Both the position numbers and the translations under genes were made by a program. Source: Peltaster fructicola (Eukaryota > Ascomycota > Dothideomycetes). From it: DNA of 64,000 bases. Positions 19,477 through 46,562 of this stretch are shown here, piece after piece. The stretch lies in NCBI GenBank assembly GCA_001592805.2, contig CP051142.1, positions 1,984,001-2,048,000 on the forward strand, written 5' to 3'. The notes under the pieces are model-generated. The model did not search any database. It saw only the letters and a list, made by a program, of their open reading frames with translations, and was not told the origin of the DNA. Numbering within the stretch: position 1 is the first letter of the stretch; the number at the start of each line of letters is the position of its first letter.

Positions 19477-21384
19477 ATGCGCTTGCTCAAGACTACCCTC
19501 GATGGCGGCGTTTCCTTCACCAAAGACTTGTCCGAAGAGCAGCTATCAGGTCCTGAATACAAATACGCAATCTTGTCTCACAGATGGGGCAAACAAGAAG
19601 AGGAGGTCACGTACGAGGACGTCTTGAATGGGCTGGGTACAAGCAAGCCTGGAATTGGCTCGCAGAAGATTCGGTTCTGCATTCAACAGGCACGACAGGA
19701 TAATCTCAAGTATTTCTGGATCGATACATGCTGTATCGACAAGAGCAAAGATGCTGAGCTGTCTCAAGCGCTCAGATCGATGTTTCGTTGGTATGCCAGA
19801 TCGGAGAAGTGCTATGTCTATCTATCAGACGTTCCACAGCAAGAGCAGAGCGAAGAGCTTGGTACAGGTTGGGAGCAGGACTTTCGACACAGCGAATGGT
19901 TCAGACGGGGCTGGACGCTGCAGGAGCTTATCGCACCCTCTGCACTTGAGTTCTACTCGAGGCATGGAAAGAGTCTAGGAACAAGGGTGTCGCTGGAGAA
20001 GCAGATCAACGAAGTCACGCGCATCCCAGTCAGGGCTCTGAGGGGATATGCATTGACTGAGTTCAGCGTTCACGAGCGACGGCAGTGGCAAGAAGGTCGC
20101 AGGACACAGCAGCCTGAAGACATGGTATACTCAATGTTTGGGCTGCTGAACGTCTCCATGCCAGTCTTGTACGGTGAAGGGCTGACAAAGGCCCAGCAGC
20201 GACTCGAGAATGAGATCAACATTACCCAGAAAGGTGTGTCCCTGACGGCGCTCAGGAGGATTGCTGTACTCGCTTCGCACTCGCTGACTCTGCACAGGGA
20301 TAGGGTATAGAGACTTCTCCTTGACATTCAGTCTCGCAGACGCCGCAGTCGAGACACAGCACTTTGTGGCACGAACTGACGAGCTAGAAGAGATACGCAC
20401 TAACCTTGTCAGTGACGGCAGTCGCAAGGTCGTGGTGCTGCATGGACTGGGAGGAATGGGTAAGACCCAATTGGCGATTGCTTATGCAAAGCGACACAAA
20501 GACGATTATTCAGCGTTGCTATGGCTGAACGCCAAAGATGAGAACGCTGTCAAGTCAAGCTTCATGAAAATGGCTAGGCAGATTGTCCGCGAGCAGCCGT
20601 CCAGTGCAGCACGGCTAGCTGGCTTGAGACTCGATGAGGATGTGGACGACGTCGTTGATGCAGTGAGAGCGTGGCTCAGCAGGCCCATGAACACTCGCTG
20701 GCTGATGATCTGTGATAATTATGATAACCCGAAGGTTTCAGGAAACACTGACCCATCCGCGCTGGATCTGCGTAGCTTCTTGCCTGAGGCATATCAAGGC
20801 GCGGTTATTGTCACCACCAGATCAGCGGAGGTGAGGCTTGGCCACTGTATTCGCATTCAGAAGTTGGCGCATTTGCAAGACAGTCTGCAAATATTGGAGA
20901 ACTCATCTCAGAGGAGTAATTTGGTGCACGGTAAGGGCCAGGTATCTCCCATTTCCATAGCGCTAATCAGAGACTAGATGGTGGTGCCGTAGAGCTTGCA
21001 CAAAAGCTGGATGGACTGCCGCTTGCGCTAGCGACAGCAGGTGCCTATCTGAGCCAGTCAGCCATTACGTTCAGCAAGTACCTTGATCTGTACACAAGGT
21101 CGTGGGCGAAACTGCAGCAGAAGAGCCGTTCTCTGATAACGTACGAAGACCGCACGCTCTACACAACGTGGCAGGTGTCTTATGACCAGATTGAGCGTAG
21201 GAACGGCAGTTCTGCGGATCTTCTTCGCTTCTGGGCATATTTCGACAACCAGGATCTTTGGTACGAGCTGCTGAATCACGTTGATGGTAATAGTCCTCTA
21301 TGGTTAACGACGATCGTCACAGATGAACTGGACTTTGAGCACGAGTCAGGTAGACAAGAAGGGTGCTTGAATCTTCAGGAGTGA
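19477..21384 (+). CDS. HET/NB-ARC NLR-type protein, C-terminally short
   Basis: Three exons, 19477-20233, 20298-20930 and 20978-21384, with introns of 64 and 47 bp, give 598 residues. The N-terminal 230 residues are a HET domain: YAILSHRWG, FWIDTCCIDKSKDAELSQA, WFRRGWTLQELIAP, and the closing MPVLYGEGLTKAQQRL. The NB-ARC ATPase follows with P-loop GLGGMGKTQLA, Walker B-like WLMICDNYD, the VTTRS stretch and the GLPLAL motif. Relatives continue with a full winged helix and tetratricopeptide or similar sensor repeats. This copy stops soon after the ARC region (LDFEHESG). Such proteins act in allorecognition and programmed cell death in filamentous fungi. The short form could be a truncated gene, or a HET/NB-ARC partner that works without its own sensor. 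Confidence 0.82.
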
Positions 21385-21643
21385 TTCCAATAAGTAGAGT
21401 AACTTAGATTGTTTAACACGATGCTACGAACCTGTGAACGCTATAGGAAATTATATAGAAGACTCGTATCATCGTTATGCGAGTTGCTCAAGGTGATCAG
21501 TGGTGATCACCCTGTACTTCTGAGAACGTCGTTCTCAGAACTACTGTGGTGGTCCTTGGAACATAACACCTGTCAATTTGCATGACGAGTACCTGTCACG
21601 ACTCACGAGGACACAAGCTGCCGTACTATTGATACAGGCAACA

Positions 21644-43563: not shown

Positions 43564-46015
43564 CTAGCCCTTTTGAAGACGAACACCATGTTCCTTTTGA
43601 GAGTGTGAAAGCAAGTGCTGGAGGTTTGACAGCACCAGCACACGCTCTTTGCAAGCGGGATGTGCACAAGCGATGGCCTGCTTAGCATCGATAGTCTTCA
43701 GGTGCATCCTCGAGACATGGTCCCACAATATTTGGGGTCGAACGAATCTCTTCCAACGTTGTCGCTCTGATAGCGTCTCATCGCCGACGCAGAAAACACA
43801 TTGTAGGTTATGCAGTATCACAGGGACAATCTTGCTCTCAGTCACTTCTTCCTTCGGCAACGAGGTTGAGGCTGTAGGCTGGAATGCAGCACATACGTCG
43901 GACGGTCGACCTCTTCGCTGTTCGGTGCGAGCACACATGTCGACGAGGACTTGCATGACCTTCGCACGATTGTCTGAATTAGGGCCAATGATCACAGACA
44001 TGTCGTCAGGAAGTGCTGAGAAGAACACTTGCTCAGGTGACAAATTTGCTAAAGTCCTCGAGAGCTCCAGCTGTGTCGAGACAATGCTCTCAGTGCCATC
44101 GAGTTGAGCATGAATAATTGCTCTGCTCTTGTCCTCGAAGAACTGGTCACGCCTACTGGTTAGCAATTGCCTCGAGATACGTGCCTTCAGTGCACGTAGC
44201 TGGCGACGGCATTCCTGATATTGTTGCAGAACCGGGTCATCCTTGGGTGCATTGTTGATCAACAGATAGGTCGATTTGAGCGCCTCACTGAGCTCGTCGC
44301 ACCTCTGCGTGAGACAAATCACCGTTGGCTCATTGATGATGTCCTCTTTGGCCAATATCTGGTTGGCACGTGGGTCCGCGTCTCTTGTTAGATGTCTGAG
44401 ATCAGACATCAACTCATCCTCGCATGTGTTGCCAAGCATTAGACTTGCAATGTCGAGGTTGATGCACTGGTCAATGTAGTGCTTGCCAAAGATGTCGTCA
44501 GCAGTGTGTCCAGCAAGCTGTCTGCGAACTGCTGAGGACGCGACTCCTGGCCAGTATTAGATAGATCTTCGACTACTCAGTCACTCACCGTCCACAACAT
44601 TGAGCACAGCACGCCTGAAAGAGTAGAATGTCACTTCCGGCTTCGCCATACCCATGTTGACTGCTAAAGCTCTGATCCTCTTCCTTGCTGCGTTGTCTGA
44701 AAACTCACTTCCAGATGCTTGTCTTAGTACCGCCTGTTTTGCATGGACTTTTGGTGTGAATAGTCAGTACAGTCTGACCCTCGGGCACCCTTAGAGACAA
44801 GAGGCTCTTTGCATCATTCAGTCGTTCGATACAGAAGGCATTGTCGTGTATTGCCAGGGCAATGAATTGCGCCACAGGGCAGATGAAGACGTCAGACTGA
44901 TCGAACCATCTGAATAACTTCCTATGTAACGTCAAGTCTCTGACACAAGCATACCCTGAAGCCATTCATGACCTACCTTTGAGCCCTTTGACCTTTAAAC
45001 TTGTCGAAAAGCGCTTCCAGCACAAATCGACTACGACCGTCGTCCGCCCTGACCAGTTTCAGGGCGAAGTTGCCATACGTCAAGGTTGTCGCAGCGTCAT
45101 GCTTCTCTTTGGACGTCTTGGTGGTCGTATTTGGTCGCAAACCAGAGAATGCATGTATCGTGATAAGGAGCCCTATCGAGACTCGTTCTCTTCCAGTCTG
45201 GTACCAAGCTGTGTCTTTCTTGTATAAGAAGTGTTGCATACGTCTGAAGTCTAGACCCGTAACCACAGTCTTCTCCTTGAATGTTCCTAGTTCCTTGTGT
45301 TGACACAGCTCCTCGAAGAACTGCACACGCACGTGTCAGTATTGTAGGTGTGCAAATGCATAACGCTATGACCAACCATTTGGACATCTTTGACTGTCTT
45401 TGCTTTCATTGGCCTTCGAGCCACCTTCTGATAGTATTGCTTGAGCACCCTTAAGTATTGAAACAGAGTAGTTCGTCCTACTCTTCCCTTTCGATCGATG
45501 CCTTTGAAGAATCCCTTGATGAACGTAGAGTCTGCTTTTGACAAAGCGACCAATGGATCAAATTGGAACAAGGAGCAGTACCTGCAGAGTTCATTGTCAG
45601 TCTAGAGTAAGGTTGAATGCCTGATCTCTACTTACCTGCTCCATTTCTTCACCATCAATTCAATGCCCATGCGAGTGGAGTGTTTCATCGGACGAGTGTG
45701 TTCTCCATGGTTCTTCAACTCCAGCAAATCTTGTTGTGCTTGTCTTCTTTCTTCATCATCCACATCTGCGTATGTGCCGTCGACCTCTCGTAGCGCTGAT
45801 GTGGTCAAGCAATCTATGCCGTGTCCAATTGCAGCTATTGAACCATCGCCAGCAATGTTCGAGGAAAGATCAGACCTTTGTGGAAATGACTCAGAATCGT
45901 TGTCGGAAGACTCAGAGTCGTTACCTGAGGACTCGAAGTCATTGTTTGAGGTCGACTCAGCGTCATCAAATGAAGATCTAGCTGGAAGAGAGTTGTGCTG
46001 CGAGATACAAAGCAT
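43564..46015 (-). CDS. DUF3435 tyrosine recombinase (Starship captain-like)
   Basis: Five exons, 45636-46015, 45377-45581, 44977-45320, 44589-44939 and 43564-44546, about 753 residues. A Ser/Asp/Glu-rich start precedes the recombinase core. HAFSGLRPNTTT carries the first catalytic Arg. Then come FKGQRAQR, FICPVAQFIALAIHDNAF, TFYSFRRAVLNVVDG (second Arg), RRQLAGHT (His) and GKHYIDQ (probable Tyr nucleophile). A C-terminal zinc-finger-like part has CVFCVGDETLSERQRW and HVSRMHL. This is the DUF3435 family, whose members drive Starship elements and sit at one end facing the cargo, as here. In the fourth exon, near 44,745-44,750 in an A-run, homology moves to the next frame, implying one indel or a sequencing error. 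All catalytic residues are otherwise present. Confidence 0.85.
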
Positions 46016-46562
46016 AATTGTTACAATCTGAACATGTCGATAATGAGTGACAAGAGGTAGGAGATTGTTGGGGAAACGAGGGGAATAGTGATGGCAGAAA
46101 GCTCAGTGTAGTTCCAGGACAGAATACTTATACCAGTTGTCCACGTACCGCTTGTGTATGGCGCAGACATGTCGATGCAGAGTTCAGGATCAAGACAAAA
46201 AAGTGTTGAAAAGCATATGAGCTTTAGCGCTGGAGACATTGTCGTTTGAGCGCCAGGGGTGGTATGACTCATCTGTTCTGATGGCAGCTCTACGCGACTT
46301 TGTGCAAATTATGCATCGACTTTCGTCGCCCATTTCGGCGACAGCTGTTGCCTGTTCTGGCAGCACAGGCAGTGTCAGGCCGCTTTTCGCTGTCGCGGTC
46401 GTGACTCAGGCTGACCAACAGAAAGCACGTCCTCGATGACCTCACGCTTGACATTTGGCGAGACACTTTGAACCACAACAACGAGCGTCCTTCCTCGTGT
46501 TCTGGCATTTCCGCAGCATGGCTCATCGAAGCATATTCACCAACTAGCGTCACTCATTCATC
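46016..46562. other. Spacer expected to contain the right element boundary
   Basis: About 550 bp between the recombinase start and a conserved mitochondrial gene. If the block is a Starship, its 5' end and one target-site copy must lie here. I could not pick out a terminal repeat by eye. The right part must also hold the promoter of the next gene. Confidence 0.5.

What the first reader, a model, noticed from the sequence alone, without database searches (positions are those of the whole stretch)
19477..46400. Starship-like mobile element carrying metal-resistance and NLR/HET cargo
A DUF3435 tyrosine recombinase with all four catalytic positions lies at the right edge of an accessory block and is transcribed into it. 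The block is bounded by conserved genes (POM33-like/NmrA side and the Mit_KHE1 gene). Its contents are what Starships typically carry: copper ATPase, arsenic genes, HET and HET/NB-ARC proteins, transporters. Seen directly: the recombinase motifs, orientation and gene set. Known: DUF3435 captains sit at the 5' end of Starships. Inferred: this block is one element of about 27-29 kb. Terminal repeats were not identified by eye.
Basis: partly seen in the sequence, partly recalled or inferred. Interest (0 to 1): 0.92.

Follow-up and report, generated by a model that had tools for sequence, protein, structure and literature searches.

The report
Probable derelict Starship with metal-resistance genes
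A stretch of a very compact fungal genome holds a probably damaged recombinase gene of the kind that drives giant "Starship" transposons, next to arsenic and copper resistance genes, so it may be the worn remains of such an element, but its ends could not be shown.

Summary
A DUF3435 recombinase gene (43.56 to about 46.1 kb) points into a run of accessory genes: HET/NB-ARC, PCA1-type metal ATPase, second HET, aquaporin, two MFS transporters, ACR3, a rhodanese-type gene, a bZIP-like gene, dynamin. The genome is very probably Peltaster fructicola, reported as nearly transposon-free. Own-genome searches found 2 DUF3435 loci and 1 DDE_1 transposase; this block holds one and the other.

"One 27-29 kb Starship" is not shown. 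The recombinase frame changes inside its conserved domain, so the gene is probably broken. No terminal repeats or target motifs rise above chance. Codon usage is ordinary. The other DUF3435 locus is a truncated relic with no recognised cargo. DUF3435 genes are usually solo.

Two new facts: all 7 short-period tandem arrays of the window lie in the arsenic/transport segment (28.8-37.7 kb), against 2 in 200 kb of control DNA; and a 111-bp direct duplication (28.46 and 43.14 kb) brackets that segment. Best reading: a derelict, composite, Starship-derived island (0.5), with a solo relic beside unrelated genes close behind (0.38). No relative's genome was available, so the deciding empty-site test was not run.

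The parts
43564..46170 (-). DUF3435 tyrosine recombinase (captain-type), 7 exons in my model, start uncertain; reading frame changes between 44,777 and 44,718, probably disrupted
   Evidence: Pfam; frames; gene model; frame change
19477..21384 (+). HET + NB-ARC gene, 3 exons in my model
21727..24720 (+). PCA1-type heavy-metal P-ATPase, 997-aa open frame; the only HMA_PCA1 match found in the genome
25082..26908 (-). Fot1/pogo-type transposon with perfect 25-bp inverted ends; middle (DDE_1) part of the transposase lies on the opposite strand to the two outer parts
27066..28154 (+). second HET gene, with an in-frame stop near 27,324
28492..29508 (+). aquaporin (MIP family) gene
30275..31723 (+). 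MFS transporter, monocarboxylate-type
32609..34595 (+). MFS/sugar-type transporter (phosphate-transporter-like by eye only)
34879..36244 (-). ACR3 arsenite efflux transporter, exons open; second ACR3 on C2 is 63% identical over 238 positions
36780..37480 (+). rhodanese-domain gene, read by eye as Acr2-like arsenate reductase; limits approximate
37740..38592 (+). bZIP-like regulator, by eye; the exon tested had no Pfam match
40264..42568 (-). dynamin-family gene (two adjoining models; whether one intact gene is not resolved)
28464..28574 (.). copy of the 111-bp direct duplication, 86% identical
43135..43245 (.). other copy of the 111-bp direct duplication
28797..37716 (.). segment holding all 7 tandem arrays of period 6 or less in the window
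46563..47525 (+). Mit_KHE1 gene, right neighbour of the block

Best explanation
A derelict, composite Starship-derived island. Inferred: a DUF3435 recombinase at the right edge once inserted a cargo-carrying element here, with metal(loid) resistance and HET/NLR genes and a passenger Fot1/pogo transposon; the arsenic/transport segment was added as a separate piece. Shown: the recombinase gene is probably frame-disrupted, the passenger transposase is scrambled by an internal inversion, one HET gene has a stop, while the PCA1-type ATPase and ACR3 read open. So the element probably no longer moves itself, and the resistance genes probably still work: ACR3 exporting arsenite made by the rhodanese-type reductase, the ATPase handling copper or cadmium (functions inferred from family).
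For: DUF3435 at the edge, pointing inward. Arsenic plus metal-ATPase cargo, a type documented in Starships: ARS in 3 of 20 high-confidence A. fumigatus elements, one with COP (PMC12153272 section 6). The only DDE_1 match and 1 of 2 DUF3435 loci found in the genome lie 18.5 kb apart. Small TA-type transposons riding in Starships, and derelict Starships with kept cargo, are described (PMC12506042 and PMC11623301 passages). Microsatellite excess in the arsenic segment and the 111-bp bracket suggest a composite history.
Against: No terminal repeat or target motif pair above chance, although 18 of 20 curated Starships have inverted repeats and 19 of 20 direct repeats (PMC12153272 passages). Codon usage not distinct (P 0.61). 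The other DUF3435 locus stands without recognised cargo, and such genes are more usually solo (PMC12134995 passages). HET matches are common here (83). ACR3 has a second copy elsewhere. No empty site or captain tree could be tested.
Confidence: 0.5

Rival explanations
1. Solo DUF3435 relic beside an unrelated accessory neighbourhood. The recombinase gene inserted alone or is an old remnant; the metal, HET and transporter genes gathered by ordinary gene clustering, and nothing of 27 kb ever moved as one unit.
For: No end signature; ordinary codon usage; the C2 copy is solo; literature says DUF3435 genes are more usually solo (PMC12134995 passages).
Against: Orientation and cargo type fit a Starship; the genome's only DDE_1 match sits in the same block.
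Confidence: 0.38
2. An intact Starship of about 27 kb that can still move; the frame change is an assembly error or an unusual intron, and its ends are too short to detect.
For: The remaining exons of the recombinase are open; a 55-nt intron with a poor donor can be drawn over the break; published direct repeats can be as short as 2 bp (PMC12153272 passages).
Against: That intron removes residues that match the C2 relic and the Pfam profile; the assembly was polished with Illumina reads (PMC7181583 passages); no inverted repeats found.
Confidence: 0.1

Closest known systems
Hephaestus-family Starships (Hephaestus of Paecilomyces variotii; Nebuchadnezzar of Aspergillus fumigatus)
   Same: DUF3435 recombinase with metal and arsenic resistance cargo (PMC11623301 passages; PMC12153272 section 6)
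   Different: No TTACA(N5)AAT site in either edge zone; captain probably broken; family placement of this captain not tested
Osiris h2 (Enterprise family, A. fumigatus)
   Same: Carries arsenic and copper resistance together (PMC12153272 section 6)
   Different: Its target is 5S rDNA; Rfam finds no RNA family in this window
Sanctuary Starship of Bipolaris sorokiniana with its passenger ToxTA
   Same: A small TA-type DNA transposon inside a Starship, in a Dothideomycete (PMC12506042 passages)
   Different: Sanctuary has direct repeats and empty sites and is 170-196 kb; here neither is shown
Solo or relic DUF3435 genes
   Same: The C2 locus of this genome is one; such genes are said to be the usual case (PMC12134995 passages)
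   Different: This locus has Starship-like neighbours on the 3' side of the recombinase

Membership tests
Starship | DUF3435 tyrosine recombinase gene (captain) | tested here: met
   PF11917 over its cut-off; reading frame probably disrupted
Starship | Captain at the 5' end, transcribed into the element | tested here: inconclusive
   Orientation fits, but no element end is established
Starship | Flanking direct repeats | tested here: inconclusive
   Longest 10 bp to the 15.7-19.5 kb zone, 12 bp overall; direct repeat plus inner match 8 of 10, as in most of 200 null draws
Starship | Terminal inverted repeats (present in many, not all) | tested here: inconclusive
   Best score 13; 60 null zones gave best scores 11-15
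Starship | Empty site or presence/absence among relatives | not testable with these tools
   No relative's genome held; the own genome 'has no relatives here'
Starship | Cargo genes within 15-700 kb | tested here: inconclusive
   Cargo-type genes present, but the extent is not bounded
Starship | Captain groups with a named captain family | not testable with these tools
   No fungal captain sequences reached
Fot1/pogo transposon (25.08-26.91 kb) | Psq/Tc5 DNA-binding domains and DDE_1 between inverted ends | tested here: met
   Domains; perfect 25-bp inverted ends; DDE_1 part on the opposite strand
Fot1/pogo transposon (25.08-26.91 kb) | TA target duplication (recalled) | tested here: inconclusive
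   TA on the left flank, CA on the right

The most novel reading that the evidence does not exclude
A composite, horizontally acquired Starship brought a microsatellite-rich arsenic cluster and the genome's only Fot1/pogo transposon into one of the smallest and most transposon-poor filamentous fungal genomes; its mobile parts were then disabled one by one while the resistance genes were kept, so the locus is a snapshot of cargo being domesticated in a genome that otherwise purges transposons.
Probability: 0.22. Interest if true: 0.6.

Novelty: new member of a known kind. Interest (0 to 1): 0.38.

Why it matters
If it is a derelict Starship, it shows cargo being kept in a genome whose authors report 0.05% transposable elements (PMC7181583 passages), so loss of mobile parts and retention of useful cargo could be studied at one locus, and the metal genes would be candidates for horizontally gained resistance in a fungus living on fruit surfaces. 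If it is a solo relic, it is ordinary. A full-text search for papers with both 'Peltaster' and 'Starship' found none in the library held.

Tried and rejected
Terminal repeats: inverted and direct pairs linking 46.10-46.62 kb to the left side were scored; inverted pairs and direct-plus-inner combinations were compared with null zones, and nothing stood out. Target motifs: six taken or shortened from the table in PMC12153272 plus TTAC(N7)A (recalled). In the right edge zone only the loose Gnosis motif occurs (1 site; 8 in the left zone; 64 in the window).

Dispersed repeat of about 100 bp at 46,278-46,390: looked like a split target site, but the window copy is whole compared with the others. 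Three other places match it; a search started from one of those found only itself and the window copy. It gives no boundary.

Foreign composition: codon usage ordinary. Tetranucleotide distance with microsatellites masked is raised at 15-20, 22.5-32.5 and 40-47.5 kb (1 of 40 control pieces as far), but equally at 1-7.5 kb outside the block.

Searches for relatives: protein database, 8000 candidates scored, none; viral contigs, 5 pattern matches, none confirmed; GTDB genomes, 33 pattern matches, none confirmed; Protein Data Bank, two zinc-finger matches at E about 0.5 and none for the rhodanese gene at E 0.01. Rfam: none in the window. Related small proteins at 16.7, 28.5 and 43.2 kb were considered; only the 28.5/43.2 kb DNA duplication held up.
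Full report
Source. The window is C4:1,984,001-2,048,000 of a genome of 18,987,130 bases in 5 contigs. Contig lengths 4.89, 4.13, 3.68, 3.52 and 2.77 Mb fit the five chromosomes reported for Peltaster fructicola LNHT1506: 18.99 Mb, 2.77-4.89 Mb, N50 3.68 Mb (PMC7181583, passages). The identification is an inference. The same passages report 0.34% repeats and 0.05% transposable elements.

What is there. I wrote a small gene finder trained on 200 kb of the same genome and checked parts with Pfam and NCBIfam. 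From left to right: HET+NB-ARC (19,477-21,384), PCA1-type metal ATPase (21,727-24,720), Fot1/pogo-type transposon (25,082-26,908), second HET (27,066-28,154), aquaporin (about 28.5-29.5 kb), MFS transporter (30,275-31,723), MFS/sugar-type transporter (32,609-34,595), ACR3 (34,879-36,244, minus), rhodanese gene (about 36.8-37.5 kb), bZIP-like gene (37,740-38,592), a small ORF (39,271-39,636), dynamin (40,264-42,568, minus), DUF3435 (43,564 to about 46,170, minus). Mit_KHE1 follows at 46,563. The names bZIP, phosphate-transporter-like and Acr2-like are by eye: Pfam gave no match for the bZIP exon tested and only a rhodanese domain for the Acr2-like gene.

State of the captain. Its exon frames are open and the R, YxxR, GH and Y motifs can be read. 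Against the other DUF3435 locus, the match runs in one frame to 44,777 and continues in another from 44,718; the relic reads through that point without a stop. Pfam likewise matches one frame down to 44,750 and another from 44,715. The intron that my model draws there (44,788-44,734) has a poor donor and removes matched residues. I read the gene as probably disrupted; a sequencing error or unusual splicing is not excluded.

Other lesions. The transposon has perfect 25-bp inverted ends. Its DNA-binding part is on the minus strand, its DDE_1 part on the plus strand and its C-terminal part, recognised by eye, again on the minus strand, all open: an internal inversion of about 0.5 kb. The end sequence occurs nowhere else in the genome at up to 2 mismatches (3 matches, all in this element). 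The second HET has one in-frame stop. ACR3 reads exon by exon, keeps GLARCIAMVLIW, and is 63% identical over 238 positions to an ACR3 on C2. The ATPase frame is open over 997 aa.

Genome-wide counts (own genome; the tool calls such counts lower bounds). DUF3435: 4 matches at 2 loci. DDE_1: 1. HMA_PCA1: 1. NB-ARC: 4. HET: 83. RVT_1: 4 at 3 places. SBF: 3 at 2 loci. The DDE_1 and DUF3435 matches lie 18.5 kb apart. By length alone a single locus falls that near one of two others with a chance of about 0.4% (my arithmetic, made after seeing the data). HET genes are too common here to count as evidence. The second DUF3435 locus (C2:2,966,086-2,967,130) is a truncated relic; in the 30 kb around it I recognised no Starship-like cargo, by eye. 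Its C-terminal part aligns with the window's at 30% identity.

Boundary tests. Inverted pairs linking 46.10-46.62 kb to 12.0-43.4 kb: best score 13, against best scores of 11 to 15 in 60 null zones. Direct repeats: longest 12 bp overall and 10 bp to the 15.7-19.5 kb zone; no null was run for these. Direct repeat plus inner inverted match: best 8 of 10; 200 null draws gave 7 in 80, 8 in 110, 9 in 7 and 10 in 3. Of seven motifs, six taken or shortened from published targets and one recalled, only the loose Gnosis motif occurs in both edge zones (64 sites in the window). No end is shown.

Composition. Synonymous codon usage of 10 block genes does not differ from 76 control genes (P 0.61) or 13 flank genes (P 0.16). 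HET-NLR, transposase, dynamin and captain lie at the 3rd to 11th percentile of controls, the other six at the 59th to 88th, and Mit_KHE1 outside the block below all controls. The 20 control stretches include the two beside the window, three around the C2 relic and one without predicted genes.

Microsatellites. Tandem Repeats Finder gives 7 arrays of period 6 or less in the window after merging overlaps, two of them adjoining. All lie at 28,797-37,716, among the arsenic and transport genes; the 20 control stretches (200 kb) have 2. At the control rate about 0.1 would be expected in 8.9 kb. Perfect trinucleotide runs of 6 or more copies: 6 in the window, all in this segment, 1 in the controls. 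The interval was chosen after seeing the data, but the excess is large. (AGC)7 gives 103 matches in the genome; the 100 printed fall at about 40 places (my count), two of them here. The strongest self-match of the window is a 111-bp direct duplication, 28,464-28,574 and 43,135-43,245, 86% identical; a genome search with the second copy's region found no third copy. It brackets the microsatellite segment plus the dynamin gene. This suggests that the arsenic segment was added as a separate piece; donor and mechanism are not shown, and local repeat expansion is not excluded.

Relation to what is known. ARS clusters are in 3 of 20 high-confidence A. fumigatus Starships, one of them with COP (PMC12153272, section 6 read). 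Hephaestus gives resistance to at least five metals, and derelict Starships with kept cargo are described (PMC11623301, passages). Against this, DUF3435 genes are more usually solo (PMC12134995, passages), and in Gaeumannomyces only a relatively small number were agreed as captains (PMC11905480, passages).

Verdict. A captain-type gene beside Starship-like cargo is confirmed; an intact 27-29 kb Starship is not. I favour a derelict composite island (0.5) over a solo relic beside unrelated genes (0.38) and an intact element (0.1). The empty-site comparison decides.

Noticed in passing
25082-26908: Fot1/pogo-type transposon whose transposase is split into three open pieces by an in-place inversion of about 0.5 kb; the only DDE_1 match found in the genome.
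   Followed up: partly
26867-26900: A 17-bp part of the right transposon end is duplicated in tandem.
   Followed up: no
28797-37716: Island of microsatellites in and between the arsenic and transport genes, including (ACCACT)26 and (TGAG)33.
   Followed up: partly
28464-28574 and 43135-43245: 111-bp direct duplication, 86% identical, 14.7 kb apart, no third copy found.
   Followed up: partly
46278-46390: Dispersed repeat of about 100 bp between captain and Mit_KHE1 with three diverged copies (82-85%) on C5 and C2; no Rfam match.
   Followed up: partly
L008 (C2:2966086-2967130): Second, truncated DUF3435 relic in a gene-poor gap of about 4.8 kb.
   Followed up: partly
15593-19476: 3.9-kb stretch poor in predicted genes for this compact genome, holding one 323-aa open frame without Pfam match (16,687-17,658).
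   Followed up: partly
19886-19938 and 27340-27392: The two HET genes share a 53-bp stretch at 79% identity.
   Followed up: no
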